A stretch of 40,714 bases of DNA from positions 1-40,714 of the IMG/VR virus record IMGVR_UViG_3300031721_000823; one strand, given 5' to 3'. The notes under the pieces are model-generated. The model made no database searches. It was given only the letters and a program-made list of their open reading frames with translations, and was not told where the DNA came from. This DNA is from a virus. Positions 737 through 21,060 of this stretch are shown here, one piece after another (position 1 is the first letter of the stretch; every line of letters begins with the position of its first letter). The translations under genes were made by a program, and so were the position numbers.

Positions 737-766
737 AGCCCAGTTTAACTGGGCTTTTTTATTTGC
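737..766 (+). terminator. Rho-independent terminator after fpr
   Basis: A 7-bp stem AGCCCAG / CTGGGCT with a 5-nt loop is followed by a run of T. It sits 5 bases after the fpr stop and overlaps the stop codon of the convergent lipase gene. On the minus strand the bases after the stem are not a clean T tract, so it acts mainly on plus-strand transcripts. Confidence 0.85.
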
Positions 767-1517: not shown

Positions 1518-1558
1518 GTAATATCTCCAATTATGTATATATTTAGTCAAATAAAGTG

Positions 1559-1587
1559 TTGACAAGTAAGGCTTCTTATTGTATAAT
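1559..1587 (+). promoter_or_regulatory. Consensus sigma-70 promoter
   Basis: TTGACA at 1559-1564 and TATAAT at 1582-1587, spacer exactly 17 bases. The spacer holds GTAAGGCTTCTT and the downstream part reads GGTTACATAAGTTAAT; the same text recurs around 1767-1810. It drives the 46-aa ORF at 1619. Confidence 0.9.
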
Positions 1588-4860: not shown

Positions 4861-5509
4861 TAACTGGTTTAATAACCATATCTCATTAGGTGGCAGTGTT
4901 CATATAGTACATGACACTGTTTCACTTATCGGTTCGCCCAAACCATATCTAACTGATATCTATGATAGATTCTCAAAACTAACATTCGAAGATGTAGAGC
5001 ATTTCATGGGCTCTCGTATCTTAGACAATTCAATGCCCAATCGTGCATTGATCGAAGATGCAACTAAGTTGTATTATCTAGAAGAACAAATCAAACAAGA
5101 CAAACTAATATTCAAACCGCAACTATTACACGAACCTTGGGCAGATAGATATCGTGTTCATCCTGGTTCGGGTCGTATCGCAGCAATGTGGAAATGTGAT
5201 CCCATAAAACCTATAGAAAGCATCTATATTCACTTCAATGAAGACATATTTACTATCCCTCAGAATAGCACCGAAGTGAGGTCCTCAGAGGCTTTCTTAG
5301 ACGCAATCACGTATAAGGCGACTAATAGCATAGATTGTACAGTGGAACCAGCGTTAAAACGTACGGAACGAGACACCGAATGGAATCCAACAATAGTAAG
5401 TACCGTAAATTGGGAATTCATTCGTTATAGTGAAGGGAAATATTTCTTGGAATATAAGCAAGCATGGCGTGACTACGCACTCGACTTATGGTTACTACTT
5501 AATCGCTAG
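4826..5509 (+). CDS. Unknown protein, 227 aa, partner of the SGNH hydrolase
   Basis: The reading frame starts inside the end of the SGNH gene, with AGGA ten bases upstream. A conserved-looking core reads W-A-D-R-Y-R-V-H-P-G-S-G-R-I-A-A-M-W, followed by Y-I-H-F-N-E-D. I do not recognise a family. The overlap suggests translational coupling to the SGNH hydrolase and so a joint role. Its last 15 bases overlap tail to tail with the convergent 2OG oxygenase gene, with no terminator between them. Confidence 0.6.
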   Translation: MLSSQNNFSIINNWFNNHISLGGSVHIVHDTVSLIGSPKPYLTDIYDRFSKLTFEDVEHFMGSRILDNSMPNRALIEDATKLYYLEEQIKQDKLIFKPQLLHEPWADRYRVHPGSGRIAAMWKCDPIKPIESIYIHFNEDIFTIPQNSTEVRSSEAFLDAITYKATNSIDCTVEPALKRTERDTEWNPTIVSTVNWEFIRYSEGKYFLEYKQAWRDYALDLWLLLNR

Positions 5510-6115
5510 ATTAGATCTAACCCAGTCATGCATTTCAGGCGTGTTATGCGCATTGATAACTAACCAATAACTATCTTTAGTACTTGCATTAAATAATGCA
5601 TGCTCTAATGTAGTGTTCACTGCATATAGTTGGCCCATTTCAAAATAAAGCGGCTTATCTTCTAACATAAATCTAAACCACGGATTTGTAGTATTAGATA
5701 ACGCCATTATTAATCTAAACGTATCCACATTTTCACCACGACTATCTCGATGTGGTGGGAAATAACCGCCTGGCGATACTCTCAATATATGCGTTCTACC
5801 ACATAAATGTAATATATCACCAAGTAACTCTTTCATTGAAGTGAGATCATACACAGGGGTAGTTTTATCAAAATCTTTTTCACTGTAATCTGTATTATAT
5901 TTTCTATTCCATTCATACAGACTATTCAATGCGGGACCAGATTGATTTAAACCACTTTCATTTATTACACATAGACCGTCTCGCTTAATATGTGGTTTAA
6001 ATTCATTGTATTGTTCCCATTTATCGTCAAACTGTGATAGTTCTTCCATAAATCTGCTAGTATTAATACTCTTATCTAATAAGATTTGATTTCCTAAATT
6101 AAAAATTACAGACAT
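5495..6115 (-). CDS. 2OG-Fe(II) oxygenase, aspartyl/asparaginyl beta-hydroxylase type
   Basis: 206 residues from ATG 6115, which has AAGGA eight bases upstream; an earlier in-frame codon at 6199 would overlap the upstream radical SAM gene. The double-stranded beta-helix core shows R-V-S-P-G-G-Y-F-P-P-H-R-D with iron ligands His122 and Asp124, and E-H-A-L-F-N with His172. These are the ligands of the AspH/cupin-like hydroxylases, which hydroxylate peptide side chains or small molecules using O2 and 2-oxoglutarate. Last gene of the radical SAM operon. A second enzyme of the same type lies at 11623-12378. Confidence 0.72.
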   Translation of the reverse strand: MSVIFNLGNQILLDKSINTSRFMEELSQFDDKWEQYNEFKPHIKRDGLCVINESGLNQSGPALNSLYEWNRKYNTDYSEKDFDKTTPVYDLTSMKELLGDILHLCGRTHILRVSPGGYFPPHRDSRGENVDTFRLIMALSNTTNPWFRFMLEDKPLYFEMGQLYAVNTTLEHALFNASTKDSYWLVINAHNTPEMHDWVRSNLAIK

Positions 6116-6119
6116 ATAA

Positions 6120-7289
6120 CTATTCCTTAAAAGATGTATCGCCGGGAAACAATGGTAATTGTGTACCTGGCGCACGCTTAGGTATCTTACTATCTGCACT
6201 ACTCACGCACGCATTAGTCGTACATACTGTGGGTGCATCAAATAACTTGAAACCTGTTTCTATATTTCCTAACGGCTGATCTACGCAACTATAACTACGC
6301 TTCACACTACCATCTGGTTCTCTGATAATAATACTACGATGACCAGATGAACATTCCCAGCCCTTGAATTTATTAAAACCAAATGCGTTGAATCGTTCAG
6401 CCTGATCCATGAACCAATGCTTGTTATCTTTATCCATGAACTCAACTTGAAAATGCTGAGGCACTGTTACATTCTCTTCCCAATACAACGGATCCCCATC
6501 TTTCTTAAATGTAGGTGTCGGGCGTGTAACCAACTGAGTCTTTTTCGCTTTATCTTCTGTATAACCACGCTGTGGCATACCGTTGTGTAATCGCTCCATC
6601 TGCTCTGCGGTGTAACCATCTACTATCTTACTAGCAGTAGGATCAGACATAGGCTTTAATGTACAGTTGATTCCCTGATTATGAAAGAATAACGCATTAT
6701 CCCAATCTCGCTCAAACCATTCTGGAACCATCACTTGATTGATAGTTACTTGTACATCATGTTCTTGACAGAATATTAACTTATCAGCAAAGACTTGCAT
6801 CTTTTCTCTAGTGTCTAAATGCTCTGTGTGCAAACTTGCTGTAATACTTGCTCTATGAAATGGTGCGACATTCTTAACATAAGTCTCAAACCACTTCATG
6901 GGACGTGACATATTAGTTGTCATGTGAACTGATGTGTAATTAGTGTTATCTACATCATCTGCAAGGTGTTTCATTATATCCAAATATCCCGGATGGAATG
7001 TTGGTTCACCCCCGCTTAAACTAAAGTGAAAACTATTGAAACCATTGTCTCGTGCTTGACGCTTAATCTCGTCAACTGTACGTAAACATAACTCAGTAGG
7101 TCTAAAGTCTTTCTTATCACTACGAGCGTAAGGCCAGCAGTAACTACAACGATAGTTACAATAGCGTCCCAGTAACCAACTAATACTGAATAAATCGCGA
7201 TGAAGCATTGTGCGTTGCCCTACTCTTACTAAATCATCAAATGGTATTTTAGTAAAATCGTATGTACTGTATTTTAAATCTTCGCTCAT
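6120..7289 (-). CDS. Radical SAM protein with C-terminal Cys-rich region
   Basis: About 389 residues. The S-adenosylmethionine cluster motif C-N-Y-R-C-S-Y-C (Cys44, Cys48, Cys51) is followed by S-G-G-E-P at 92-96. Unlike the other radical SAM proteins of this operon it has no N-terminal Cys domain; instead several Cys lie near the C-terminus (W-E-C-S-S-G-H, Y-S-C-V-D, T-V-C-T-T-N-A-C), where they could bind auxiliary Fe-S clusters in SPASM fashion. The start at 7289 follows the nuclease stop by one base (TAA-A-ATG); an ATG at 7322 with GAGA upstream is the alternative. Substrate unknown. Confidence 0.85.
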   Translation of the reverse strand: MSEDLKYSTYDFTKIPFDDLVRVGQRTMLHRDLFSISWLLGRYCNYRCSYCWPYARSDKKDFRPTELCLRTVDEIKRQARDNGFNSFHFSLSGGEPTFHPGYLDIMKHLADDVDNTNYTSVHMTTNMSRPMKWFETYVKNVAPFHRASITASLHTEHLDTREKMQVFADKLIFCQEHDVQVTINQVMVPEWFERDWDNALFFHNQGINCTLKPMSDPTASKIVDGYTAEQMERLHNGMPQRGYTEDKAKKTQLVTRPTPTFKKDGDPLYWEENVTVPQHFQVEFMDKDNKHWFMDQAERFNAFGFNKFKGWECSSGHRSIIIREPDGSVKRSYSCVDQPLGNIETGFKLFDAPTVCTTNACVSSADSKIPKRAPGTQLPLFPGDTSFKE

Positions 7290-7290
7290 T

Positions 7291-7728
7291 TTAGATGCAC
7301 CATGAAATCTTTTTATCGCCATAATATTCTCTAGCAAAGCCTTCTGCTATGAGCATGTGTCTTAAACTCTTGCCATCTATAATGATATCACCAAGTACTC
7401 GACCACCATACTTGTCCCATTTATAAATGGCTACTTGTATAACCGTTGCTGCATTTAACATATCTTTAGTAAACTGTGACGCTTCTTCACCCCATGCTGC
7501 TTCTTTAGGACATTCTGCTCTCCAACTTTTTTCTGGAGTATCTACACCATATACACGAATACTTAATTCCTGCTTCAATGGTGCTGGTAAAAAGGTAGCT
7601 TCAAATGCAACGGTGTCGCCATCAATCACTCTTGTAATCTTATAATCGTAGATGGTCATCTCTACTTCTTTTGCCATTGCTGGCATTGTTGATAGTATTG
7701 CAATTAATAAAATTATAATCGTTCTCAT
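7291..7728 (-). CDS. Secreted staphylococcal-nuclease-like (SNase/TNase) protein
   Basis: 145 residues. An N-terminal signal peptide is clear (hydrophobic residues 4-16, then P-A-M-A-K around 16-20). The SNase fold shows V-I-D-G-D-T-V, the catalytic R-V-Y-G-V-D-T-P-E (Arg58, Asp63, Glu66) and G-G-R-V-L-G-D (Arg110), so all key residues of the Ca2+-dependent nuclease are present. Export would place it in the periplasm or outside the cell. Its presence inside the radical SAM operon is odd; it overlaps the 312-aa gene by 4 bases (ATGA type). Confidence 0.85.
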   Translation of the reverse strand: MRTIIILLIAILSTMPAMAKEVEMTIYDYKITRVIDGDTVAFEATFLPAPLKQELSIRVYGVDTPEKSWRAECPKEAAWGEEASQFTKDMLNAATVIQVAIYKWDKYGGRVLGDIIIDGKSLRHMLIAEGFAREYYGDKKISWCI

Positions 7729-8663
7729 GCTGTCTCTCCGTTAATGTAGTATTTATTATAAAGTATATCGTATGCGTCTACGACCTGTTTGTAACGCCTA
7801 CCATATATCTGTGCTGCTTCTTTTAATATATCACTGTTACTTACACCTAAGTAATCAAGTATAACATCTGTATTTTTAAACCATTCAACGTCTACTACTA
7901 AATGATCAATTTTATCTTCTTCTATATAGGATAATGACTCATTTTGAACAAACACATCTTCGTAATCGTGTTTTTCTTCAAATAGCCTATGGAACGAATA
8001 CTCAAATTCAAAAATACCATCACCAGTGTTATCGTCTATGTGACTTAGCGATTTCTTCAAATCCCAATGTGCAAAATTTAATTGCCACATATATTTCAAC
8101 TTACCATCGTGAAAATCCTCTATACATTTGTCGTGATAATCTCTATACCAAACTTCTTTCCATTTGCCAATAATATCTCCGTCCATTAGCATGTGATCTT
8201 CCCACCACAACTGCGTTTGTTCAATTATCTCATCTTCTGTTAATTCAATAAATGCATATTGCGTTATATAGAACATTGCACTTTGTTCGGTTGTGACTTG
8301 GGTGAATATGAGTTTGTCAGCAATTGGTGCGAACCTTGAATCATATGTAGCACCGAAATAATTACTCCACACTTTATATTGAAAATCTTCATTAAATTTA
8401 AAATATTCGGAAAGGCAATCAATCCCACCATCTGTTTCTGTTTTATTTTCCATCATTCTAAGCGTTTCTTGATGACTATAATATAAATCTTGATCAATAA
8501 GATGGGTATATCGGTTCTCTTCAACTATGGTTCCAATTGCTAGTCGTTCAGGTGTTGGCTTTAATCCAGAATAGATTTGAGGACCAAATCTATGATCTTG
8601 TGCAAGCCACCAATGAATCGCAGGTGCATGTGCATTTACTACTTGATATATTCCGATGTTCAT
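7725..8663 (-). CDS. Unknown protein, 312 aa
   Basis: Starts M-N-I-G-I-Y-Q-V-V-N-A-H-A-P-A-I-H-W-W and is acidic, with many Trp and Tyr residues. The C-terminal part (V-D-V-E-W-F-K-N-T-D-V-I-L-D-Y-L-G-V) has the spacing of the end of some phage sulphotransferase- or glycosyltransferase-like proteins, but no P-loop-like PAPS-binding motif is visible, so I leave it unassigned. It is coupled to the 38-aa ORF upstream and the SNase downstream through ATGA overlaps. Confidence 0.65.
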   Translation of the reverse strand: MNIGIYQVVNAHAPAIHWWLAQDHRFGPQIYSGLKPTPERLAIGTIVEENRYTHLIDQDLYYSHQETLRMMENKTETDGGIDCLSEYFKFNEDFQYKVWSNYFGATYDSRFAPIADKLIFTQVTTEQSAMFYITQYAFIELTEDEIIEQTQLWWEDHMLMDGDIIGKWKEVWYRDYHDKCIEDFHDGKLKYMWQLNFAHWDLKKSLSHIDDNTGDGIFEFEYSFHRLFEEKHDYEDVFVQNESLSYIEEDKIDHLVVDVEWFKNTDVILDYLGVSNSDILKEAAQIYGRRYKQVVDAYDILYNKYYINGETA

Positions 8664-8776
8664 AGTGCAAGGTAATTAGGCATAGCCATGATAGGCGATG
8701 ATGTTAAAATTATAGCCAATGTGACTGACGCCACTTTAGCCAATAGCACTACTGCTTGCTTAATATATATTTTCAT
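8660..8776 (-). CDS. Short hydrophobic peptide, 38 aa
   Basis: ATG 8776 has AAGGA six bases upstream and the stop overlaps the next start (ATGA at 8660-8663). The product has a basic start (M-K-I-Y-I-K-Q) then a long hydrophobic stretch (V-V-L-L-A-K-V-A-S-V-T-L-A-I-I-L), as in a signal peptide or a single-span membrane peptide, and a possible A-M-A cleavage site. Nothing known matches. In this setting it could be a small membrane component or a peptide substrate of the operon enzymes (speculation). Confidence 0.6.
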   Translation of the reverse strand: MKIYIKQAVVLLAKVASVTLAIILTSSPIMAMPNYLAL

Positions 8777-8785
8777 AATTATTCC

Positions 8786-9385
8786 TTAATTTTTTGAACG
8801 GTTAATCCATTCTTCATCTGTCACTTGTATAGGATCAATACTTAATTCATTCAATGACAGATGTTCAGGCAATATCATCGCATATTCAATACAATCTACC
8901 GCTTCTTCAAATGTCATCAACTTGCGTCCTGGATGCTTGTCTGCGTTATTCGGCAATGTACCAAACGTAACATAACTCACCTTTGGGCCACCTTGCCAGA
9001 TACTTTTCAATCCCATAGCGTTACTCGCACTACGTAATGCTTTCTTCTCTTGTTGATATGTCCAATCCGACCCTTTTGTAGCCCTGTCCGTGGTGGACCC
9101 GACAGACACTATATGTAGGGATTTCCGGGCACTCTGTGCGGTTTTATATACTACATCTAGTAGCAGTGCCTGATGGTACTGCCATAGTGCACTACAGTTA
9201 ATAAAAATGTCGTATTCTAGTGCTTTATTTGCAACAGTTTTTTTCACATGATTCAATGTTAGATCATGGTCACTGATGCTTTGACTAATAAAATCTGTCT
9301 GTGGATATCGTTTTAATATCTCACTCGCTAGACCAATCTCTGGATTACCTGTACATAATATTTTCTTATTAGTTAAATCAATCAC
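8786..9385 (-). CDS. SDR-family NAD(P)-dependent oxidoreductase
   Basis: 199 residues from GTG 9385, which has AGGA seven bases upstream and overlaps the stop of the zinc-ribbon ORF (GTGA). The nucleotide-binding loop is C-T-G-N-P-E-I-G-L-A (11-20), I-N-C-S-A stands where SDRs have N-N-A-G, a Ser-rich strand V-S-V-G-S follows, and the catalytic pair is Tyr110 and Lys114 (Y-Q-Q-E-K). This is a complete SDR, so a dehydrogenase or reductase acting on a hydroxyl or keto group is expected. SDRs commonly follow radical SAM dehydrogenases in sugar pathways, but the substrate here is unknown. Confidence 0.75.
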   Translation of the reverse strand: MIDLTNKKILCTGNPEIGLASEILKRYPQTDFISQSISDHDLTLNHVKKTVANKALEYDIFINCSALWQYHQALLLDVVYKTAQSARKSLHIVSVGSTTDRATKGSDWTYQQEKKALRSASNAMGLKSIWQGGPKVSYVTFGTLPNNADKHPGRKLMTFEEAVDCIEYAMILPEHLSLNELSIDPIQVTDEEWINRSKN

Positions 9386-9501
9386 TTTACTTTCCTTTTT
9401 ACTACTGGACGCAACGTCCATATTTCTTTTGTACATCGGTGTGGCATATCGTCAACGTAGGTACCACAATATGGGCATAGAATCTGATTAGTTATTGTCA
9501 T
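9382..9501 (-). CDS. Zinc-ribbon-like peptide, 39 aa
   Basis: ATG 9501 has AAGGA seven bases upstream, inside the end of the upstream radical SAM gene. The product has C-P-Y-C-G near residue 8 and H-R-C near residue 21, giving three Cys and one His as possible zinc ligands, then a basic tail (R-P-V-V-K-R-K-V-K). Its TGA overlaps the SDR start codon, which implies coupling. Function unknown; it could bind metal, nucleic acid or a partner enzyme. Confidence 0.6.
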   Translation of the reverse strand: MTITNQILCPYCGTYVDDMPHRCTKEIWTLRPVVKRKVK

Positions 9502-10708
9502 TGATTTGTCCTTTAAATTCTGGACATGATTCTACTAACGTACCACGTTGCAATTCATCCATCTTCAAATTATAATCAATAAATTCTTGCCAGTGTTCAG
9601 CATGTGTATTCCCAGCATTTAAATACTTAATCACATCGTCTACCTTAGGCCATGCTTTATGACTTTTTAAATTATACAATGCCAACGTCTTTAAATGATG
9701 TGGCAATACTTGTATATTCATACTACGCGGATGGTTTAATATATTGAAATATAACTGATCATGTTCTAATCCACGTGATTCCGCAAACTCGATAACCTCG
9801 TGTAGTGCACATACATTCAATGCTTGTACCGTACAATGAATCTGAATATATACATTATCCAATTTAGATAATTCATCAAAATTCTTTTCTACTATATGCC
9901 AATGACTAGGGTAACGAATATATCTGTCACGCGCACCAATTGCATCAATTGAGCAATTTAATTGTACACGCTTGAAATGTGACCAATATTCGATCATCTT
10001 CGGTGGCACATTAGTTAGGTTGGTGTTGTACTTTAAACGAATGCCCGATGCAAGATCATTTTCAATACAATAGTCTAACAACTTATATTGACTAACTGCC
10101 AATGTAGGCTCACCACCAGTTAAATAAATTTCTTCAACCGTATGAGCAATTTCAGTGAATGTAATACCTGTCTTTTCCCAATCTGGCCATTCAGTCATGG
10201 TATTCATGAATTCTAATGTGTCTTCATCCAATTTCTTTGGTGGATCTAAATATGCTGCATCAACTACTTTATTCCAATCTTTAACCCACATGCTACTTGC
10301 CCACGGATTACACATGCGACATTTTAGGTTACATAAGTTACCCAAGCGTAAGTCAACATATTTCACATCAACTGGAATTTCAACATCTATCTTCACATCT
10401 TCTTTCAGCCACTTTTCATTAAATCCTGCTCGCGCACTACGAATGCCAGCATCTTCTTCTCTGAAACAACGCGCACACATATCTGGTCGCTCACCATCGA
10501 TGAACTGTTTTCTGATAGTTGTATAGGTTGGGCTATTCCATACTTCATCTAAATCATGCTTGTAGATTTTATATGGCTTGCCATTCTCTTGTAATATTGT
10601 GTTCTCACCGGGCGTGCTATTACAGCATACTCGATAAGATCCCGCAGCATTAGTTGCTACGTGCATAAAGGGTAAAACACAGAACGTGTCACTTACTTTT
10701 TTTGTCAT
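9488..10708 (-). CDS. Twitch/SPASM-type radical SAM protein
   Basis: 406 residues from ATG 10708. An N-terminal auxiliary domain carries Cys10, the pair Cys28-Cys29 (Y-R-V-C-C-N) and C-A-R-C (Cys78, Cys81). The radical SAM core follows with C-N-L-K-C-R-M-C (Cys126, Cys130, Cys133) and L-T-G-G-E-P-T. An N-terminal rather than C-terminal Cys domain is shared with four other genes here. Known relatives use an auxiliary cluster to oxidise or crosslink bound substrates. The gene begins five bases after the stop of the preceding radical SAM gene. Confidence 0.88.
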   Translation of the reverse strand: MTKKVSDTFCVLPFMHVATNAAGSYRVCCNSTPGENTILQENGKPYKIYKHDLDEVWNSPTYTTIRKQFIDGERPDMCARCFREEDAGIRSARAGFNEKWLKEDVKIDVEIPVDVKYVDLRLGNLCNLKCRMCNPWASSMWVKDWNKVVDAAYLDPPKKLDEDTLEFMNTMTEWPDWEKTGITFTEIAHTVEEIYLTGGEPTLAVSQYKLLDYCIENDLASGIRLKYNTNLTNVPPKMIEYWSHFKRVQLNCSIDAIGARDRYIRYPSHWHIVEKNFDELSKLDNVYIQIHCTVQALNVCALHEVIEFAESRGLEHDQLYFNILNHPRSMNIQVLPHHLKTLALYNLKSHKAWPKVDDVIKYLNAGNTHAEHWQEFIDYNLKMDELQRGTLVESCPEFKGQINDNN

Positions 10709-10712
10709 TGGT

Positions 10713-11645
10713 TTAAATCCATTTTGTATAATCTTTGCCATCACTATCATCTAGTATCATTACATGATCAATCAATTGTTGTTTATTATCTTGATCATCC
10801 AATGCACCCGGAGCCATGTATGCGGGACTAATCAAATCACTCGCTCTATTGAAGTGAATATCGTGACTTGTCGCCCAATCATTCACTTCGTGAATGTTAT
10901 TAATATTTAGTACACTTGGTAAACACGTAATACATATACTCGTATTATCAGGTGAACTCTTGTGTATGTCAATGATATTATTACTTACTTGTTCCCAGTT
11001 TGCTCCTCGTCTAAGGTATTCAAAACGCTCACCTATGGCATCTACACTTGCAACTATTATAACACGTTTAAACGATTCGAACAAGGGATAATATGCATTA
11101 ATATCTATTGTTCCATTAGTAATGAATTGTAATTCAATCGTAGATGAAACGTCTGCATCGATCAGATATTTAATTATCTTCTTTACTTGTGGTATCATGA
11201 ATGGTTCACCACCTGTAAATTTAAGAATCTTTGCAAAATGCAATTGTGGGTATATCTGCTCAATATCTTTGTGCCAACCTGTATTTGCTTTGCGCTTACC
11301 AGTTTTTACTGCCCACGAACTTGAACTATAACTATCACATGAGACGCACGTGAGATTACACGTGTTGTTAATCTTTAAGTCCCATTGCTCTGTGCCAATG
11401 CTATCTGCTAGTACATCATTCATATACATTCGATAACTCTTACCATTTGACTCTTCATCTTGTTGGCACTCTATGCATTCAGGCAACCAACCTCGCAATG
11501 ACTCAACATAGTATTTGTTGTGCAACGATTCCCAATCATCGGTAATTGCAACACCAGATGATGCCGCATTCCAAGCACAGCATGGTCTAACTTCGCCTGT
11601 TACGCCTATCGTTACTGCATGTTTAAACGCCAAGCATTTTGGCAT
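10713..11645 (-). CDS. Twitch/SPASM-type radical SAM protein
   Basis: 310 residues. N-terminal Cys domain: Cys4, Cys22-Cys23 (R-P-C-C-A-W) and C-I-E-C (Cys57, Cys60). Core motif C-N-L-T-C-V-S-C (Cys96, Cys100, Cys103), then F-T-G-G-E-P-F. It is the shortest of the five twin-domain enzymes, so the C-terminal part of the barrel may be reduced. The start overlaps the upstream oxygenase gene by 23 bases; a later start would remove the first conserved Cys, so this one is kept. Confidence 0.86.
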   Translation of the reverse strand: MPKCLAFKHAVTIGVTGEVRPCCAWNAASSGVAITDDWESLHNKYYVESLRGWLPECIECQQDEESNGKSYRMYMNDVLADSIGTEQWDLKINNTCNLTCVSCDSYSSSSWAVKTGKRKANTGWHKDIEQIYPQLHFAKILKFTGGEPFMIPQVKKIIKYLIDADVSSTIELQFITNGTIDINAYYPLFESFKRVIIVASVDAIGERFEYLRRGANWEQVSNNIIDIHKSSPDNTSICITCLPSVLNINNIHEVNDWATSHDIHFNRASDLISPAYMAPGALDDQDNKQQLIDHVMILDDSDGKDYTKWI

Positions 11646-12378: not shown

Positions 12379-12388
12379 AATTTATCTC

Positions 12389-13948
12389 CTATTGTTCAAA
12401 TGTTAATGTTTCATTATTGGTTGTACTTATAATAGCCCTTGATGGACATGTTAAGTCGTTATCGTTTATATCAGTGCCCGAAAACCAACAATCATCATGC
12501 AATTCATTTAATTTAGTTATTAAACTAATGAAACTCAATTCCATTGCAAACGGTTTACTAAGCATCTTTGGCACAATATAACTATAGATATTAGATGTCC
12601 ACATCAATGTTCTTTTATTTTCTACTGCTTCAAATAATTTATCATGTCCATATATTAAATCACATTCAATTACTTCCCAGTTGCTCTGTCTGATTCTATC
12701 CCATACTGATAACCAATTAGTATCTCCATCAAATTGCTGTATTACGTTTGGCCATCTCTCAAAAGTCAAATCTCTTAAATTTCCATTTGCATCTGGATGC
12801 TGTTCAATCCATGCATCGACAAACTCAGGATAGTTTATACCATCCCATTGTTCTAACATATCTCGTTTGAATTTACAACTCAATGGATCAAAATCATATA
12901 ACACAAATTTCGTGTCTTTTGTAAAACCATACTTGTATGCATAGTAGAATAATTTAAAGCCCGCAGTTGCACCAACATATTGATCAAATACCGTTCCTTC
13001 AATTTGTTCTGCAATACCAGGCTGACTAGATTCTGTATTTACAAAATATATAGGACTATCTGGTGCGAACATCTCTCTTATCATTCGATTTGCTTGAAAT
13101 GTTAGTTTATCACTGTCAAACGGTAAACCTTGTATAGCCTTCTCAAATTCAATTGAACCAACATGCGGCTTCATCGTGGCTAAACAATTCATAAAATCTG
13201 CACTCAATCCTGGGACAATTAGTTCTTGTCGCAATGACCATGTCAATAACGGATTGCACAATTTATGATGGTATTGTTCATTAAATTCTTCGTGTGTTAT
13301 CCACGTATTCCATGTAGCATGTTTGATATTTAATCGTGCACCACCAAGTTTTACAATACCAAATAAACTATCCTCAAAATCTTCAACTATTCCTTGTTTT
13401 CTAGTAACCCAATTGTCACTTGGCTTTTCATGTCGTGTACCTTGACGAGAATACCGATCTGCGGGATCTTGATTGTATAATACATCAGCGGGATCTTGTG
13501 CACCTTGCTCATACCACGTATCTAAATTAATCAGTATGATGTTTCTTTCAAAATGAGAATATCTTTCATCATCGGTTTGTAATATATTTCCTGCAACTAT
13601 CCATTTAGTGATATCAAATTCTTCATTAATACGATTTATTTCATCAAGTAATTTTAAGTTAACATCATCAGATGCTGACCAAGTGCCGTCAAACCACATA
13701 CATGCATAACGATATCCTAATTTGCGCATAGCGATCATCCAACTAATTTCGGATTGTCCTACAATGTTAACTATGCCTCCCCGAAGATGATTATTATGTT
13801 CTACCTCTGCTATTTCACGTAACTTTTGCTTTAATATAGGTGTGTCACTTAATTCAATACTATCAGTGTTATTTGAATTGAATGCGTGAACTATTGGCCA
13901 TGAATTTTCTCCATGATAATAATTCCACAGACTCTGTCCTTTCTTCAT
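12389..13948 (-). CDS. Unknown large protein, 519 aa
   Basis: Second-longest complete protein in the window, acidic and Trp-rich, starting from ATG 13948 with AAGGA upstream. A stretch near residues 340-385 (Y-V-G-A-T-A-G-F-K-L-F-Y-Y-A then K-F-V-L-Y-D-F-D-P-L-S) has the look of a Rossmann-type nucleotide or SAM fold with an acidic strand end, and a later T-L-M-W-T-S-N-I-Y-S could be a matching motif IV region of a methyltransferase. This is a weak reading. It sits between the split SPASM gene and an oxygenase. Confidence 0.6.
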   Translation of the reverse strand: MKKGQSLWNYYHGENSWPIVHAFNSNNTDSIELSDTPILKQKLREIAEVEHNNHLRGGIVNIVGQSEISWMIAMRKLGYRYACMWFDGTWSASDDVNLKLLDEINRINEEFDITKWIVAGNILQTDDERYSHFERNIILINLDTWYEQGAQDPADVLYNQDPADRYSRQGTRHEKPSDNWVTRKQGIVEDFEDSLFGIVKLGGARLNIKHATWNTWITHEEFNEQYHHKLCNPLLTWSLRQELIVPGLSADFMNCLATMKPHVGSIEFEKAIQGLPFDSDKLTFQANRMIREMFAPDSPIYFVNTESSQPGIAEQIEGTVFDQYVGATAGFKLFYYAYKYGFTKDTKFVLYDFDPLSCKFKRDMLEQWDGINYPEFVDAWIEQHPDANGNLRDLTFERWPNVIQQFDGDTNWLSVWDRIRQSNWEVIECDLIYGHDKLFEAVENKRTLMWTSNIYSYIVPKMLSKPFAMELSFISLITKLNELHDDCWFSGTDINDNDLTCPSRAIISTTNNETLTFEQ

Positions 13949-13978
13949 TTTTCGTCCTTATCGTCTGATTTCATATGT

Positions 13979-14314
13979 TCATTTATTCCCACAAAAATAG
14001 GAACAAACTGTTGGTGGATTATCACTATCAAATCCTTCATCCCATAGATATGTCCAAAATAAATTATGCTTCGTTACATTTTCGACTCCATGTACTACAG
14101 CATTATTCCAATCAGGATCTTCTTCATTAAGTTTATCCAATACGGTATCAGTAAGATCAACATGACTATTGGAAGACTTTTTTAGTTCAGTAGCATAATA
14201 ACAACATGGCCAGACCCTGCCCGCTACAGTTATCTCAAATTGGCGCTTCACTTTATCGTCTTTTGTCTCACATGCGACTATACACTCAATGTTATTTTTA
14301 TTAGATTCCTTCAT
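13979..14314 (-). CDS. Stand-alone SPASM-like Fe-S domain protein
   Basis: 111 residues with the Cys layout of a SPASM domain: Cys11, Cys15, the pair Cys37-Cys38 in G-R-V-W-P-C-C-Y-Y, then H-N-L-F and C-S-Y-F-C near the end. No radical SAM core is present. It is encoded directly after the 14301 core gene, overlapping it by 14 bases, and has its own AGGAG six bases before the ATG, so it is translated as a separate protein. It most likely works together with that core (inference). SPASM domains normally bind auxiliary [4Fe-4S] clusters. Confidence 0.75.
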   Translation of the reverse strand: MKESNKNNIECIVACETKDDKVKRQFEITVAGRVWPCCYYATELKKSSNSHVDLTDTVLDKLNEEDPDWNNAVVHGVENVTKHNLFWTYLWDEGFDSDNPPTVCSYFCGNK

Positions 14315-14999
14315 ACCGTACTCCTAGATTTTGAAATCGCTGCTTTAATTCTTCTATTACGTGATGCTCGTCGCGTTCACGCAAACGCATTGCATATTCA
14401 AGATCTACTATAAAATTCATCTCGATATCAAGTTCACCTGCGTGTAAATATGCTTCTTCTATTTGATGTATATTCCATTCAAATAATATAAACTGCCATC
14501 GCGTCTCACCATCATTATCATTAAACGCTCGCATATTGGCATATGCCTTATCAAATACTACACCCTCTCTATATTTCCAATTAGTATCATGATCTAATCC
14601 ATCAATACCAAATATAATACTCAGTCTTCCAGAATATTTTTTAGCAATTGTTGCATACCAATTAGCATTTCTAAGACCTCCATTGGTACTTATAATCATA
14701 GATACATCTTTATCTTCATCTGCTAACACATATTCCATCATTTCATTAATATGCGGATTCATCATGGGATCACCATATTGTCCACATAACTTAACATATC
14801 GTACTTTATTAGATACATTATATTCGCTGGAAAAAATCATTTTAAATGTTTCAAGCGACATATGCTCTTGTACTAACCAATCAACAGGTTCACCAGTATC
14901 AGGATTAGTACGTGGACACCGTCTACATCTTGCATTGCAATATGTAGTTATTTCCATTTCCACTTTATGAGCGTCTACATCGTCGTACTTATATATCAT
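14301..14999 (-). CDS. Radical SAM core protein, partner of detached SPASM protein
   Basis: 232 residues, about the size of a bare radical SAM barrel. Cluster motif C-N-A-R-C-R-R-C (Cys21, Cys25, Cys28) near the N-terminus; the SAM-binding G-G-E-P position reads C-G-Q-Y-G-D-P-M, a known variant in some SPASM enzymes. It ends L-G-V-R-Y-E-G-I where fused homologues would continue into a SPASM domain, and that domain is encoded by the next ORF. The ATG at 14999 overlaps the end of the 14989 gene. Confidence 0.85.
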   Translation of the reverse strand: MIYKYDDVDAHKVEMEITTYCNARCRRCPRTNPDTGEPVDWLVQEHMSLETFKMIFSSEYNVSNKVRYVKLCGQYGDPMMNPHINEMMEYVLADEDKDVSMIISTNGGLRNANWYATIAKKYSGRLSIIFGIDGLDHDTNWKYREGVVFDKAYANMRAFNDNDGETRWQFILFEWNIHQIEEAYLHAGELDIEMNFIVDLEYAMRLRERDEHHVIEELKQRFQNLGVRYEGI

Positions 15000-17335: not shown

Positions 17336-18230
17336 TATTTTTATACCTCTTTAGTGCTTTCGCTAAGTTGATGCGATTGTATGCGCGATCACGATGGAAC
17401 ATATCCCATTCTGGTGTATCAGGTGCTTGGGCAATATGTATCGTATTAGTCTCTTGCAATCCATAATGTTCACATACAATTTTATGTGCTTCTCTATATT
17501 TGTTAGGCATAGTATCTGGGCTGAACTTTTTCATTAACGCATTAGACAATGCTACATTCAAATGAATACCGTGATTCCATTCTGTCTGCACTCGCATACC
17601 ACAACGCTCTTCATCTAAACGACTGAACACAATACCAGCACGCCAGTTACCACCACTTAATCCTTTACCAGTGCTGAATGCAACCATCTTAATACAATCA
17701 TGTGACAAATCAACATCAATATCAAAACAAGTTCCAAACCATGCACAATCTACCAGAATAGGAATATTCTTTGCTGTACACTCTTCAATCAACCAATCCC
17801 ATCGCTCGTGCTTGCGTCCGTTACCACTGAATGGAATACTAACGATAACCGCATCACCTACGGATAACCCAGTATCGTCAATGCTATCTGACCAATTCAT
17901 TTCTGGTCCCAACCATACATCACGGTTATACGGATATTCACCACGGAACACCTTTAAGTTCTGTCCAGTAGCGATGCACCAATACTGCCACCATTCTAAT
18001 GCTTGTGTAGTACCTAAACTAACATAACGATCAGGATATGTATCTAACCCAGTAAAGTTATTTAATTTGCTGCTTTGTATCCATTTGGGATATAATTCTA
18101 AGAATTCTGCTGGTGCTGTACCCACTTCTGCCAAATTCATATTTGGCAATACTTCATCTTGTATATAGTCAATAAATGGTTGATTCCAAATACTGTTGCC
18201 TGTCTTACCGAAATCTGGGTTGTTACTCAT
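17316..18230 (-). CDS. PLP-dependent aminotransferase-like protein (fold type I)
   Basis: 304 residues. Seen: V-S-L-G-T-T-Q-A-L (cofactor phosphate loop, about 70-78), I-L-V-D-C-A-W-F-G with Asp161 (pyridine-nitrogen ligand position), and A-F-S-T-G-K-G-L with Lys189 (Schiff-base lysine) followed by Arg197 in N-W-R-A-G-I-V-F. The spacing fits class I/II aminotransferases, but the protein is shorter than their usual 380-420 residues and lacks a clear C-terminal domain. It could transfer an amino group or act as a lyase or epimerase. ATG 18230 shares its A with the upstream TGA and has AAGGA seven bases before. Confidence 0.72.
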   Translation of the reverse strand: MSNNPDFGKTGNSIWNQPFIDYIQDEVLPNMNLAEVGTAPAEFLELYPKWIQSSKLNNFTGLDTYPDRYVSLGTTQALEWWQYWCIATGQNLKVFRGEYPYNRDVWLGPEMNWSDSIDDTGLSVGDAVIVSIPFSGNGRKHERWDWLIEECTAKNIPILVDCAWFGTCFDIDVDLSHDCIKMVAFSTGKGLSGGNWRAGIVFSRLDEERCGMRVQTEWNHGIHLNVALSNALMKKFSPDTMPNKYREAHKIVCEHYGLQETNTIHIAQAPDTPEWDMFHRDRAYNRINLAKALKRYKNNGKFAE

Positions 18231-18493
18231 CATGTATTCCTTGTTAGTCCTAGTGCTATTGCATTATCAAATGTAATAGGATGTGCGCTTACAACGAGCA
18301 TAAAGAAATCTCTCGCTTCATCGTAATCATTAAATATAGATTCAAATACTATTTCACTTGTTGTACCACTAAGTGTAACACTATATTTGTCTGTAATTGT
18401 TTCATCCGAATATGTGAGTATAACTAAATCGTTATTAGCACCCATATTGTCTTTGAAGTCTTCTGTCGTTTTTATATATTGTCGTTTTATCAT
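18230..18493 (-). CDS. Small protein, 87 aa, unknown
   Basis: Begins M-I-K-R-Q-Y-I-K-T-T-E-D-F and consists of what looks like alternating beta strands and a helix (I-F-N-D-Y-D-E-A-R-D-F-F-M-L-V-V). Single-base overlaps link it to both neighbours. No family recognised. One of several small proteins encoded inside the radical SAM operon. Confidence 0.6.
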   Translation of the reverse strand: MIKRQYIKTTEDFKDNMGANNDLVILTYSDETITDKYSVTLSGTTSEIVFESIFNDYDEARDFFMLVVSAHPITFDNAIALGLTRNT

Positions 18494-18744
18494 TATAAAT
18501 ATGCCATCTTTAATAAAAATATTTCTTCATCTGGTAGGTCAACTAGAGTAACCCATTCATTGAATGTATAATTAATTCCATCAATCCACCATGCAGCGTG
18601 ACCATCAGGCCATATAACCGCAGGTCCAATCTCATTATGCCATATACACTCATCGTCGTATATGTAGCCGCAATATTCTCTATGATGTACGATCACGATA
18701 CCATCGTTTGTTACTACAAATGTGCAAGTTGCACTATCTGACAT
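18493..18744 (-). CDS. Small protein with W-H-N-x-x-G-P-A-V repeat-like motif, 83 aa
   Basis: Carries I-W-H-N-E-I-G-P-A-V-I-W-P-D-G near the middle, then W-W-I-D-G-I-N-Y. This G-P-A-x-x-x-x-D-G unit is widespread in small phage and bacterial proteins with MORN-like beta hairpins; no biochemical role is established that I know of. It overlaps the radical SAM gene upstream by 11 bases and the next gene by one. Confidence 0.65.
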   Translation of the reverse strand: MSDSATCTFVVTNDGIVIVHHREYCGYIYDDECIWHNEIGPAVIWPDGHAAWWIDGINYTFNEWVTLVDLPDEEIFLLKMAYL

Positions 18745-19984
18745 AACTCTCGATTTCTGGTATATACTGCAATGTTTCTGTTTTTCGTAATCTATCTAAA
18801 TCGTCAGTGTACCTTAGAAACCAATTCCATTGCTTATCAGATTCTTGATCATCTTCGTTTGATAACATTAACCCATTACGAATGGATTCAATACCTGTCT
18901 GATATCCACCTTCATCTGAGTTTGCACTAGTAAGTGGCCACATTTCTAAATTAGGGATATGCTTTATTTTATCATACGCCAATGCTTTCAACTCTTCTGG
19001 CATATTTCCTATATTCAAATAGCCAGGATGAACTACCACGTTACTCATCGAAATACTTGCACGATGCGCATGATGGGTAGCAAACCATTCCCAGACTTTA
19101 TCTAAATTAAATATATTGGTAATCATTACCGTAACAGCAAACACTACCTCTACATTTGGGATATCGTAGAATTTTTCTATGTTCTCGTTCAATTGATCCC
19201 ATGTGTAACTAGGACCGCCACGAATAATACTATATAATTCATCAGTTGCTTCTACACTAATTAATAATTCTACATGCTTAAAGTGACTGAATAATTCTCT
19301 AAATTCTTCTTTGAATACGGTTGCATTTGTACTGATGTCTAATGATACGCTACTTGCAATACCATTGTCTACAAACCATTGCAATACTGATAAACAGATT
19401 TCATCATACAACGGCTCACCACCACGCAGTGCCACCCATTGCAGATTGCGAAAATACTCTGGATTCTTAAATAGATTATCCATGAAGTCTATACTTGCAC
19501 CATGATAACCTATTGGCTGTTTACTCCAATATTCTGGCTTTTCTCTATTAAGAGATTTACCATCTTTAGTCCAGCCTGTACTTACGAACGGATCACAATG
19601 AATACATGCTAGATTACATTTATTACTAAGAGTAAAATCAAGATACCTAATATCAGGAACAGAATCTACTGTAAGATCTTTACTCGCAACCTTTGTTTCA
19701 TGATCAATTCTATCCCAGAAATATAAACGACGACTGCGCCCAACTTTCTCTTTCTTCACGCAACCCTGACATGATTCTGGAATCTCACGCTTACGATGTG
19801 ATTCTCTCAATTCAGTGTATGCATCTCCCTCTAGTATTTCACGCAATGATTGCTTACCAATATTACCTAATTTACCTTTATAGATAATGTCTGGGATGAC
19901 GTTACCACCCCATTTAACAGTTAATGCGTGCCAAGGTGCTAAACAGGTAGGTAGATCTTTTCTATTTACGAATGTGTTTTTCAT
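18734..19984 (-). CDS. Twitch/SPASM-type radical SAM protein with altered Cys domain
   Basis: 416 residues. Core C-N-L-A-C-I-H-C (Cys123, Cys127, Cys130) and L-R-G-G-E-P-L are intact. In the N-terminal domain Cys14 and C-Q-G-C (Cys72, Cys75) remain, but the Cys-Cys pair seen in the four paralogues is replaced: the matching stretch reads G-G-N-V-I-P-D-I. The auxiliary cluster would thus have fewer Cys ligands, which may leave an open iron site or mean the cluster is lost. First enzyme of the operon to be translated after the kinase-like gene; its ATG directly follows that gene's TAA. Confidence 0.86.
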   Translation of the reverse strand: MKNTFVNRKDLPTCLAPWHALTVKWGGNVIPDIIYKGKLGNIGKQSLREILEGDAYTELRESHRKREIPESCQGCVKKEKVGRSRRLYFWDRIDHETKVASKDLTVDSVPDIRYLDFTLSNKCNLACIHCDPFVSTGWTKDGKSLNREKPEYWSKQPIGYHGASIDFMDNLFKNPEYFRNLQWVALRGGEPLYDEICLSVLQWFVDNGIASSVSLDISTNATVFKEEFRELFSHFKHVELLISVEATDELYSIIRGGPSYTWDQLNENIEKFYDIPNVEVVFAVTVMITNIFNLDKVWEWFATHHAHRASISMSNVVVHPGYLNIGNMPEELKALAYDKIKHIPNLEMWPLTSANSDEGGYQTGIESIRNGLMLSNEDDQESDKQWNWFLRYTDDLDRLRKTETLQYIPEIESYVR

Positions 19985-20746
19985 TTAATTTATAGAACCT
20001 ATGTTACGCCTGTTTATTTCCTTTAATTTTTCATAAGATATACGTGCTGCTGTTTCTATGTTAATCTCACAATCATCTAATACAGTATTATACGTTAATT
20101 TTTTATAAACGTCATATGTACTATTATAATACTCAAACAGCAAATTATAGTCAGCGCCAATCTTTGCGGCTTCATACAAAGTTTCTACAGCATCTATTAC
20201 TAGGCATTCACCTATGTATTGTGAATCGTGAATTTGACCAAGAATGCAATCATCCCAATCAATAATAATCCAATCACCAATATCAAACTGCAATATATTA
20301 CTACGTCCGCCGTCAACATTACAATAAGGAAATATCTTCAGATTTGTTTCTATATATTTTGGAAATACGTGTTTATTATACATATCCATATCGTTGTATA
20401 TTGAGGATAATGGGTTAGAGTCATTCTCCAACCAAGATAAATTTTTGTCTAATTCAAACCCGTAAGGAACTCTTGTCATTTTATACTTAATAAAAGAATT
20501 TGAGTTTGACTCATTACCATTCCAAGAATAATCTAGTCTTTCAATAATTTCCCAATCATCATGTATTAGTTTTTTAGGGTGTAATGAATTTATTAGATCA
20601 ATTTGTCCTTGAATACATTCTTCATCAATAGCTGGTATTATTTTTACAATAAAATTACCATCGTCATATGCCCACCTTGGCATATGACATGATCTCTCAT
20701 TAGGATCACCGGGTTCGAACTTATCTGGCATTAATTTCTTATACAT
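19985..20746 (-). CDS. Kinase-fold protein resembling aminoglycoside phosphotransferases
   Basis: 253 residues. The pattern fits an APH/choline-kinase fold: a beta strand with Lys35 in F-I-V-K-I-I-P, a catalytic loop N-V-D-G-G-R-S-N (Asp145, Asn150) and the metal-binding W-I-I-I-D-W-D-D (Asp163). The usual His of the H-x-D loop is replaced by Asn, so the reading is moderate. Such enzymes phosphorylate small molecules or proteins with ATP. It is the second gene of the radical SAM operon, so it could activate the pathway's substrate or modify a host protein (inference). Confidence 0.5.
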   Translation of the reverse strand: MYKKLMPDKFEPGDPNERSCHMPRWAYDDGNFIVKIIPAIDEECIQGQIDLINSLHPKKLIHDDWEIIERLDYSWNGNESNSNSFIKYKMTRVPYGFELDKNLSWLENDSNPLSSIYNDMDMYNKHVFPKYIETNLKIFPYCNVDGGRSNILQFDIGDWIIIDWDDCILGQIHDSQYIGECLVIDAVETLYEAAKIGADYNLLFEYYNSTYDVYKKLTYNTVLDDCEINIETAARISYEKLKEINRRNIGSIN

Positions 20747-20748
20747 TA

Positions 20749-20979
20749 TTAAAACAGTTCTCTTAATAATTTCTCTTCTGCTTTCTTCTTTGTACGACGA
20801 TTTACGTCTGCTGCTGCAATTTCTCGCTGCATGTAATCTTCAAACATATTTTTCAGTTCATTCTCTTCTAAATTCACAATCTGTGATTTAATTGAAGATA
20901 ACACTTTTGTTACACTCATATCTGTACTTTTATTAATCTCATCTTGGATGATATTTGTTACTACGTCTGCATTAATCAT
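20749..20979 (-). CDS. Small helical protein, 76 aa, first gene of the operon
   Basis: Begins M-I-N-A-D-V-V-T-N-I-I-Q-D-E and ends with a basic helix (N-R-R-T-K-K-K-A-E-E-K-L-L-R-E-L-F). Clear ribosome site AGGGGA before ATG 20979. A long AT-rich leader separates it from the promoter at 21031-21060. Function unknown; as the first gene it might be a regulator. Confidence 0.65.
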   Translation of the reverse strand: MINADVVTNIIQDEINKSTDMSVTKVLSSIKSQIVNLEENELKNMFEDYMQREIAAADVNRRTKKKAEEKLLRELF

Positions 20980-21030: not shown

Positions 21031-21060
21031 ATTATATACTATGTTTATATGTTCTGTCAA
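21031..21060 (-). promoter_or_regulatory. Sigma-70 promoter of the radical SAM operon
   Basis: On the minus strand TTGACA (21055-21060) and TATAAT (21031-21036) are separated by 18 bases. The leader to ATG 20979 is about 45 bases and contains a second TTATAAT. No other promoter of this quality is visible down to 5495, so this one probably reads the whole block. Confidence 0.8.

What the first reader, a model, noticed from the sequence alone, without database searches (positions are those of the whole stretch)
5495..20979. Radical SAM operon: seven cores, two hydroxylases, PLP, SDR and kinase-like genes in one run
About 21 minus-strand genes, mostly overlapping or separated by under 30 bases, follow one strong promoter. 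Five proteins share an N-terminal C-(x)-CC-(x)-CxxC domain before a CxxxCxxC core; one has C-terminal Cys; one is split from its SPASM domain. Two AspH-type oxygenases, a PLP fold-type I protein, an SDR and an APH-like kinase are interleaved. The paralogues are strongly diverged, so each probably does a different step. This looks like a phage-borne biosynthetic or modification pathway (peptide, sugar or envelope decoration) with no product I can name.
Basis: partly seen in the sequence, partly recalled or inferred. Interest (0 to 1): 0.88.

Follow-up and report, generated by a model that had tools for sequence, protein, structure and literature searches.

The report
Phage gene cluster of radical enzymes
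A run of seven different radical-forming enzymes with several helper enzymes in an uncultured phage is real, recurs in hundreds of related phage sequences, and has its closest known cellular relatives in a bacterial phylum that includes bacteria-eating predators, but what it makes is still unknown.

Summary
The operon is real. All seven radical SAM (rSAM) cores are present; five are N-terminal-twitch enzymes (NCBIfam NF033640). With them lie one clear and one weak AspH-type oxygenase, an SDR, a PLP-type protein and a 519-aa protein modelled as glycosyltransferase-like plus methyltransferase-like. A perfect sigma-70 consensus lies upstream. The 'kinase' is unsupported.

The genes travel together. 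Four distant phage records keep most of the core in one order at 36-78% identity and hold 10-25 rSAM domains each. The hub (6120-7337) has relatives in at least 520 IMG/VR stretches; of the 80 best, 78 have two or more rSAM genes nearby. It has no match in 50,697 isolate phage records. In genomes it was found in Bdellovibrionota plus five MAG contigs that look like phage. NF033640 is over cut-off in 94/290 Bdellovibrionota genomes against 2/299 Pseudomonadota (one such a contig).

Best reading: a multi-step tailoring pathway, most likely building or decorating a sugar-based product. Substrate and product are not shown. Phages with many rSAM genes were known (Campylobacter CP220; a TARA T4-like genome); the hub-defined module and its Bdellovibrionota kin I did not find in my paper searches.

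The parts
5495..6199 (-). AspH-like 2OG/Fe(II) oxygenase-like protein, 234 aa
   Evidence: PF05118 8.7e-4, below cut-off; 34% to a Mosig protein annotated Asp_Arg_Hydrox
6120..7337 (-). hub radical SAM enzyme with C-terminal twitch-like domain (rSAM-F)
   Evidence: PF04055 52.3 bits; at least 520 related stretches; AF2 pLDDT 86.3; C329, C351, C372, C377 invariant in 32 sequences
7291..7728 (-). endonuclease-like ORF inside the run, probably not part of the pathway
   Evidence: phrog_452 9.8e-23
7725..8663 (-). unknown 312-aa protein
   Evidence: no PHROGs family, Pfam only 0.056 or worse; 54% and 36% in G008 away from the cluster
8786..9436 (-). short SDR with conserved YxxxK
   Evidence: family profile against PDB SDRs 1.1e-8
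9488..10750 (-). N-twitch radical SAM
   Evidence: NF033640 375 bits
10713..11645 (-). N-twitch radical SAM
   Evidence: NF033640 186 bits
11623..12378 (-). AspH-type oxygenase; H166, D168, H214, R224 invariant in 6 sequences
   Evidence: PF05118 2.4e-11; alignment
12389..13948 (-). 519-aa protein: N-terminal GT-A-like fold, C-terminal Rossmann/methyltransferase-like fold
   Evidence: AF2 pLDDT 67.9; Foldseek nothing under 0.001; VIA: majastridin Z 9.7, LARGE1 Z 9.4, 6ulo Z 11.9, NNMT/PNMT Z about 10
13979..14314 (-). SPASM-like fragment, likely split partner of the next ORF
   Evidence: PF13186 0.0096
14301..14999 (-). radical SAM core without its own auxiliary domain
   Evidence: PF04055 31 bits
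14989..16215 (-). N-twitch radical SAM
   Evidence: NF033640 313 bits
16202..17335 (-). N-twitch radical SAM
   Evidence: NF033640 226 bits
17316..18233 (-). PLP fold-type-I-like protein
   Evidence: weak Aminotran_1_2; D162, S187 and K190 invariant in 7 sequences
18230..18493 (-). small ORF, 87 aa
   Evidence: no match outside L010/L011 (same virus) among the 11 loci compared
18493..18744 (-). small ORF, 83 aa
   Evidence: beyond L010/L011 only 78% in L012 among the 11 loci compared
18734..19984 (-). N-twitch radical SAM lacking the CC pair
   Evidence: NF033640 253 bits; Cys list
   Evidence: no match
20749..20979 (-). first ORF of the run, 76 aa, unknown
   Evidence: beyond L010/L011 only 63% in L012 among the 11 loci compared
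21031..21060 (-). perfect sigma-70-type promoter consensus

Best explanation
A phage-borne tailoring pathway. Shown: a compact operon with seven diverged rSAM enzymes (five N-twitch, one hub with a C-terminal twitch-like domain, one split rSAM plus SPASM-like piece), AspH, SDR, a PLP-like protein and a GT-A plus methyltransferase-like protein; the core is conserved as a unit in distant phages and the same toolkit recurs in Bdellovibrionota chromosomes. Inferred: each rSAM makes a 5'-deoxyadenosyl radical and abstracts hydrogen at a different unactivated C-H, so the set oxidises, epimerises or rearranges one scaffold step by step; SDR and PLP exchange keto and amino groups; AspH-type enzymes hydroxylate; the GT/methyltransferase attaches or caps. 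Most likely the scaffold is sugar-based (a surface glycan, or an aminocyclitol- or nucleoside-like sugar derivative), used during takeover of a Gram-negative cell, for example to change its surface against rival phages. The hub probably does a step common to all members, the variable rSAMs the member-specific decoration. Some relatives add a nucleosidase-family protein beside rSAM genes, which could clear 5'-deoxyadenosine, and an amidinotransferase.
For: Co-occurrence and synteny. 6-21 rSAM domains in each of 15 large records, all with the hub (12 found by it; three checked at 73-77% identity), and 25 in G008. Sugar side: GT-A-like fold in the 519-aa protein; GT2 (PF00535, 1.5e-17 and 9.9e-22) directly after the hub in two Bdellovibrionota loci; an amidinotransferase in G004, G005, G007, G008, whose G007 copy matches HsvA 8.8e-24, SxtG 2.9e-18 and inosamine-phosphate amidinotransferase 3e-17 and whose profile matches the one in CP220's rSAM cluster (4.5e-21); that CP220 cluster also holds two proteins whose record notes a nucleotide-diphospho-sugar transferase domain; highest VIA Z of the hub is BlsE (16.9; that BlsE acts on a sugar acid is recalled); carbamoyltransferase, epimerase/GDP-mannose dehydratase and FkbM methyltransferase among 120 accessory families. 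Nucleosidase family PF01048 in 4 of 17 records, three of them within a few hundred bases of an rSAM gene.
Against: I saw no sugar-nucleotide synthesis or export gene in the window run (families). The hub's VIA match to BlsE leads peptide enzymes EpeE (15.6) and SkfB (15.3) by only 1.3-1.6 Z, and by Foldseek E-value the top rows are SuiB (peptide) and viperin, with BlsE not among the 50 listed. SPASM/twitch domains are better known from peptide maturases (recalled). Foldseek found nothing under 0.001 for the 519-aa model, whose mean pLDDT is 67.9. Its family is in 13 of 80 hub loci and 0 of 25 genome loci; the amidinotransferase is in 2 of 80 and not in the window's species. Pfam finds nothing in the two CP220 'sugar transferases'. 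At least 67 of the 120 accessory families have no Pfam hit (counted).
Confidence: 0.4

Rival explanations
1. Protein or peptide modification: the rSAM enzymes and AspH modify a phage or host protein, or a peptide encoded elsewhere, as RiPP maturases do.
For: SPASM/twitch domains and weak NCBIfam hits to peptide maturases; hub close in fold to SuiB, anSME, EpeE and SkfB; AspH-type oxygenases are often protein hydroxylases (recalled).
Against: No small ORF family (22-110 aa) on the hub strand occurs in more than 15 of 105 loci (1478 short ORFs that overlap long ORFs little), so no common cis-encoded precursor was seen. Glycosyltransferase-like, amidinotransferase and carbamoyltransferase genes stay unexplained.
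Confidence: 0.25
2. A small diffusible metabolite (aminocyclitol- or nucleoside-like) that acts on the infected cell or on competitors, rather than a surface decoration.
For: Amidinotransferase close to SxtG, inosamine-phosphate amidinotransferase and HsvA; BlsE as highest VIA match of the hub; Trp halogenase, P450, AMP-binding and carbamoyltransferase matches among accessory families; two chromosomal clusters looked at in Bdellovibrionota are flanked by ordinary metabolic genes.
Against: No scaffold-forming synthase, exporter or resistance gene was identified, though none was searched for by a dedicated model; a lytic phage has little time to make and use a diffusible product (inference).
Confidence: 0.15
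3. Hypermodification of phage DNA or tRNA.
For: PP-loop ORFs (SGGxDS) in 34 of 80 hub loci, one tested is QueC by Pfam (3e-8) and one tested has no hit; Campylobacter phages carry 7-amido-7-deazaguanine in DNA (PMC6884629, passages).
Against: A ThyA-family gene is in only 4 of 17 large records, at strengths expected of ordinary thymidylate synthases; 6-25 rSAM domains exceed any base pathway I know of (recalled); the toolkit sits in Bdellovibrionota chromosomes.
Confidence: 0.08
4. On origin: the phages infect Bdellovibrionota and simply exchange genes with their hosts.
For: Genomic hub relatives are Bdellovibrionota in 20 of 25 loci and the N-twitch family is rich there (94 of 290 genomes).
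Against: In the hub tree 41 phage rows and 5 MAG contigs fall on one side of a 100/100 branch and the 19 other genome rows on the other, so no recent exchange is seen. The window's acyl-CoA dehydrogenase is nearer Pseudomonadota (63%, 536 bits) than Bdellovibrionota (54%, 409 bits) in samples of 150 and 144 genomes.
Confidence: 0.2

Closest known systems
Campylobacter phages CP220 and CPt10 rSAM clusters (PMC2853527)
   Same: T4-like phages with 11 and 12 rSAM proteins and an exchangeable cluster of five plus a putative amidinotransferase (passages); CP220's cluster also has two proteins with a noted nucleotide-diphospho-sugar transferase domain; its amidinotransferase is related to those of hub phages (L103 27.8%, 1.3e-25; G004 25.0%, 1.4e-21) and three of its rSAMs to the 14301-like family (best 8e-28)
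   Different: No hub, and no match to three N-twitch queries, in any Campylobacter phage record; no AspH, PLP or SDR is annotated in the CP220 stretch 60000-105000; the window's species lacks the amidinotransferase
T4-like environmental genome TARA_ERS488813_N000010, 12 rSAM genes (PMC5332604)
   Same: T4-like, 183 kb, many rSAM genes together with other Fe-S genes (passage)
   Different: the passage treats them as Fe-S proteins; I did not look for its sequence, so whether it carries the hub is not tested
Pelagimyophage host recognition cluster (PMC7029224) and Pelagibacter phage Mosig EXVC030M
   Same: rSAM cassettes in the host recognition cluster (passages); in Mosig, Asp_Arg_Hydrox, aminotransferase, MoaA-like and carbamoyltransferase genes next to tail fibres; a PLP relative at 22%
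   Different: no hub; 2 PF04055 matches in the whole Mosig record; other partners (FMN reductase, nitroreductases)
Vibrio phage KVP40 and relatives
   Same: N-twitch-like rSAM proteins at 19.6-24.7% to 14989 in Vibrio phages; a QueC-like gene near two rSAM genes
   Different: three rSAM genes are annotated in the 14.7-kb KVP40 stretch viewed, interleaved with unrelated genes; the rest of its genome was not checked
NCBIfam NF033640, twitch domain-containing radical SAM protein
   Same: five window proteins pass its cut-off
   Different: a subfamily model that names no reaction; hub and split rSAM are outside it

Membership tests
Radical SAM superfamily (PF04055) | domain score over curated cut-off | tested here: met
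   6 of 7 over cut-off, the seventh 26.9 against 29.5
Radical SAM superfamily (PF04055) | CxxxCxxC cluster motif | tested here: met
   7 of 7
Radical SAM superfamily (PF04055) | partial TIM barrel | tested here: met
   hub only: AF2 pLDDT 86.3; rSAM structures fill the top rows, BlsE Z 16.9 over 274 residues; the other six were not modelled
N_Twi_rSAM (NF033640) | score over 170 bits | tested here: met
   5 window proteins 186-375 bits; 6120 and 14301 score about 42, not members
   complete in 4 of 5; 18734 lacks CC
RiPP radical SAM maturase system | precursor peptide encoded beside the maturase | tested here: not met
   no hub-strand small ORF family in more than 15 of 105 loci; ORFs under 22 aa or buried in long ORFs were not examined
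Asp_Arg_Hydrox (PF05118) | score over cut-off and HxD...H iron ligands | tested here: met
   11623-12378: 44.2 against 22.6, residues invariant in 6; 5495-6199 is below cut-off
PLP fold type I | Schiff-base Lys and pyridine-N Asp | tested here: inconclusive
   K190 and D162 invariant in 7; profile matches weak
SDR | Rossmann fold with YxxxK | tested here: met
   profile 1.1e-8 to 2nwq; Y127 and K131 nearly invariant in 11
CP220-type phage rSAM cluster | five or more rSAM genes in one run | tested here: met
   seven in the window
CP220-type phage rSAM cluster | amidinotransferase in the cluster | tested here: not met
   none in G002, the window's species; present in G004, G005, G007, G008
[quoted passage not shown]
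   QueC by Pfam in one hub locus; a QueE-like look in fam25 (10 of 80 loci, by eye); FolE, QueD and DpdA not searched

The most novel reading that the evidence does not exclude
A single conserved 'hub plus N-twitch' multi-radical-SAM pathway, new in composition and product, is used by two unrelated kinds of killer of Gram-negative cells: a large uncultured clade of T4-like phages (up to 25 radical SAM domains in one record) and predatory lineages of Bdellovibrionota. It makes a product that helps take over, seal or re-mark the invaded cell.
Probability: 0.25. Interest if true: 0.88.

Novelty: new variant of a known kind. Interest (0 to 1): 0.72.

Why it matters
Radical SAM enzymes do chemistry that few others can, and a virus rarely carries many (recalled, and said in PMC2853527). 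Here one enzyme is kept at 69-78% identity in the 80 best phage loci while its partners change and multiply to 6-25 domains per record. That points to a constant substrate with a changing decoration, as in an arms race over surfaces or receptors (inference). The closest cellular relatives found are in Bdellovibrionota, a phylum with cultivable predators, which offers a route to the function of phage genes left open since the Campylobacter phage report of 2010. If true, it would name a new class of tailoring pathway and a shared tool of phages and bacterial predators.

Tried and rejected
Rejected or weakened: (1) chance or scattered genes: co-occurrence is strong. (2) Cis-encoded RiPP precursor: none general; the best hub-strand small family, 74 aa, is in 15 of 105 loci. 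(3) APH-like kinase: no match in four libraries. (4) Bdellovibrionota as host: the acyl-CoA dehydrogenase points to Pseudomonadota. (5) Isolate phages and plasmids: hub 0 phage records; one N-twitch query 0 plasmids; megablast of window 17000-40714 against phages, none. (6) The 519-aa protein has no phage tblastn match, no Pfam hit over cut-off and no NCBIfam hit. (7) The GT-A reading of fam47 and fam129 rests on a recalled DGDN motif: Pfam gave 0.0026 for fam129 and nothing for fam47, NCBIfam nothing, and a PDB search of fam129 nothing useful; fam26 has no PDB match. (8) The two CP220 sugar-transferase-like proteins match nothing in my cluster ORFs and no Pfam family. (9) Tail-fibre adjacency, as in Mosig, was not shown for the window; the cluster lies near MoxR-like ATPase and DNA polymerase genes. 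(10) tRNAs: 8 plus a tmRNA call in G008, none in G002. The tmRNA bears an asterisk, which I recall marks a permuted gene as in Alphaproteobacteria and cyanobacteria; not pursued.

Limits: the 80 hub loci are the best-scoring of at least 520 stretches, so co-occurrence counts lean to close relatives. The 51 PLP loci include the window's own virus (L010, L011). G009 repeats part of G008, G006 resembles part of G007, and G001 and G002 match the window, so the independent distant comparisons are G004, G005, G007, G008. The genome scan works from two short peptides and misses distant relatives. The Bdellovibrionota sample of 290 included the ten genomes I already held; phylum names come from record titles and tree labels, not from the search. 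In the large samples matches had to reach 1e-50 and only some candidates per genome were scored (6, up to 11). Only four phyla-level or control sets were compared, so other phyla may hold the family. Genes were called by a simple longest-ORF rule. That five MAG contigs (L176, L178, L186, L195, L200) are binned phage DNA is inference from the tree and gene content. In the tree every second of the 80 phage rows was used, plus the window; the partial row L199 was left out.

Full report
What was checked. The window is a 40,714-base virus record with a phage DNA polymerase (phrog_262, 1.6e-201); that it is T4-like is my reading of this gene set. Two other records, of 117,470 and 48,182 bases (L011, L010), match it at 99-100% protein identity over the genes compared. 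Seven PF04055 domains lie on the minus strand from 6120 to 19984, six of them over cut-off. The run 5495-20979 holds 19 ORFs of 60 aa or more; 12 of 18 junctions overlap. A perfect sigma-70 consensus stands 52 bases before the first ATG. Five of the rSAM proteins are members of NF033640, N-terminal-twitch rSAM, by its own cut-off; the hub (6120-7337) and the split rSAM (14301-14999) are not.

The other genes. 11623-12378 is a clear Asp_Arg_Hydrox protein with invariant iron ligands; 5495-6199 is a weaker one. 8786-9436 belongs to a family whose profile matches SDR structures. 17316-18233 keeps the PLP Asp and Lys in seven sequences but matches known families only weakly. The 519-aa protein was modelled at mean pLDDT 67.9. 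Foldseek found no match under 0.001; on VIA realignment residues 14-295 align with GT-A glycosyltransferase folds (majastridin Z 9.7, LARGE1 Z 9.4, GlyE Z 9.1) and 294-519 with an uncharacterised Leptospira protein (Z 11.9) and small-molecule methyltransferases (Z about 10); confidence is middling. The kinase reading of 19985-20746 found no support.

Conservation as a unit. In four distant records, G004, G005, G007 and G008, the same order recurs, with insertions: rSAM 18734 (64-67%), PLP (59-62%), rSAM 16202 (50-52%), rSAM 14989 (60-65%), GT/methyltransferase (43-45%, with a diverged tandem copy), AspH (56-61%), rSAM 10713 (36-43%), then in G005, G007 and G008 rSAM 9488 (61-64%), SDR (69-70%) and the hub (75-78%); G004 ends at its contig end inside rSAM 10713. 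Within the window the rSAM paralogues are only about 20-27% alike over long alignments, so each orthologue is kept apart from its paralogues. rSAM domains per record: 7 in the window's species, 10, 18, 18 and 25 in G004, G005, G007 and G008, and 6-21 in each of 15 other large records; all 15 carry the hub, 12 having been found by it and three checked later at 73-77% identity. With the PLP protein as anchor, 47 of 51 loci have at least one rSAM gene; the four without are contigs of 5.9-12.3 kb, and 16 of 51 show the hub within the locus.

The hub. Within 10 kb of it, 9488-like rSAMs occur in 75 of 80, 14301-like rSAMs in 53 of 80, the SDR family in 45 of 80, and 78 of 80 have two or more rSAM genes, hub included, most often 6-8. 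None of 50,697 isolate phage records matches it. AlphaFold gives an intact barrel and C-terminal domain (pLDDT 86.3, pTM 0.87). Foldseek's best rows are SuiB, viperin and anSME; highest VIA Z are BlsE (16.9), EpeE (15.6) and SkfB (15.3). The fold does not choose between sugar and peptide.

Cellular relatives. In one genome for each of 84,980 GTDB species the hub profile found 25 loci: 20 in Bdellovibrionota (19 by title; L185 is titled only 'bacterium', but its genome G012 came up among genomes of that phylum) and five in MAGs of other phyla. In a maximum-likelihood tree 41 phage rows and those five lie on one side of a 100/100 branch and the 19 other rows on the other, so I read the five as phage contigs in MAG bins. 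Many Bdellovibrionota loci have a small module: hub, a 14301-like rSAM, an N-twitch-like rSAM of about 460-510 aa that is mostly 60-67% identical (extremes 55 and 69%) to phage copies, and unknown or glycosyltransferase-like proteins. Larger chromosomal islands exist: L201-L202 has 15 ORFs with CxxxCxxC, two AspH, a PLP protein 42% identical to the window's, a 678-aa relative of the 519-aa protein, and an amidinotransferase relative. NF033640 is over cut-off in 94 of 290 Bdellovibrionota genomes, 2 of 299 Pseudomonadota and 1 of 151 Chloroflexota; one of the two and the one are genomes holding a suspected phage contig. None of 14 control genomes is over the cut-off. Two Bdellovibrionota genomes, G011 and G017, show 19 and 18 rows over cut-off, whose list is cut.

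Function. The case for a sugar product is circumstantial: the GT-A-like fold; GT2 genes after the hub in two Bdellovibrionota loci; an amidinotransferase in the four distant phages, the G007 copy matching HsvA, SxtG and inosamine-phosphate amidinotransferase; its relative in CP220's cluster beside two proteins with a noted sugar-transferase domain, which Pfam does not recognise; and BlsE as the hub's highest VIA match. Against it stand the absence of sugar-nucleotide genes among the families found in the run and the near-equal peptide-enzyme folds. No general small ORF was found. A nucleosidase-family gene (PF01048) occurs in 4 of 17 records; in three (G008, G757, G761) it lies within a few hundred bases of an rSAM gene, which would fit removal of 5'-deoxyadenosine; that role is inference. 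The accessory census matched 47 Pfam families among 120 representatives, 25 of them shown, 20 of those by one member.

Host. Sharing with Bdellovibrionota first suggested a predatory host, but the window's acyl-CoA dehydrogenase is closer to Pseudomonadota (63%) than to Bdellovibrionota (54%) in the genomes sampled. The host is open.

Prior work. Campylobacter phages CP220 and CPt10 have 11 and 12 rSAM proteins and an exchangeable five-rSAM cluster with a putative amidinotransferase (PMC2853527, passages); rSAM is also noted for Campylobacter phage IBB_35 (PMC3322345, passages). A 183-kb T4-like TARA genome has 12 rSAM genes (PMC5332604, passage). Pelagimyophages have rSAM cassettes in the host recognition cluster (PMC7029224, passages). 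Ecological surveys report viral rSAM genes without a function (PMC7150976 and PMC9301287, passages), and one Alphaproteobacteria phage cluster pairs QueC with an rSAM protein (PMC10783043, passages). Searches pairing radical SAM with Bdellovibrio and with Bdellovibrionota listed 8 and 4 papers, none with a title or abstract start on this subject; I did not open them. The existence of phage rSAM clusters is therefore known; the hub-defined family, its scale and its Bdellovibrionota kin I did not find described in that library, which lacks most subscription papers.

Verdict. Real, not an artefact; partly anticipated in print; a new variant of a known kind with an unknown product.

Noticed in passing
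window 26508-27716 (-): ORF next to the phage DNA polymerase that matches acyl-CoA-dehydrogenase-like genes (named by eye), 63% to Pseudomonadota. An unusual phage metabolic gene.
   Followed up: partly
window 759-1565 (-): Esterase/lipase-like protein (phrog_21992, 4.9e-21), 61% conserved in G008.
   Followed up: no
window 61-732 (+): Protein that looks like a ferredoxin-NADP reductase by eye, no PHROGs match, 56% in G008 and 44% in L122 within its rSAM cluster; could supply electrons to rSAM enzymes.
   Followed up: no
L030:14779-15209, L030:29-103, L030:13988-14064, L032 (all G008): G008 carries a tmRNA call and eight tRNAs; G002 has none.
   Followed up: no
hub loci L096-L175: PP-loop (SGGxDS) ORFs in 34 of 80 hub loci, one QueC by Pfam; 39 of 48 have a C-terminal Cys pattern.
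   Followed up: partly
L206 (G380:C19): The one Pseudomonadota genome over cut-off outside the suspected phage contig has four rSAM ORFs in a row.
   Followed up: no
hub loci, 15 of 105: A 74-aa hub-strand ORF family recurs near the rSAM genes.
   Followed up: no
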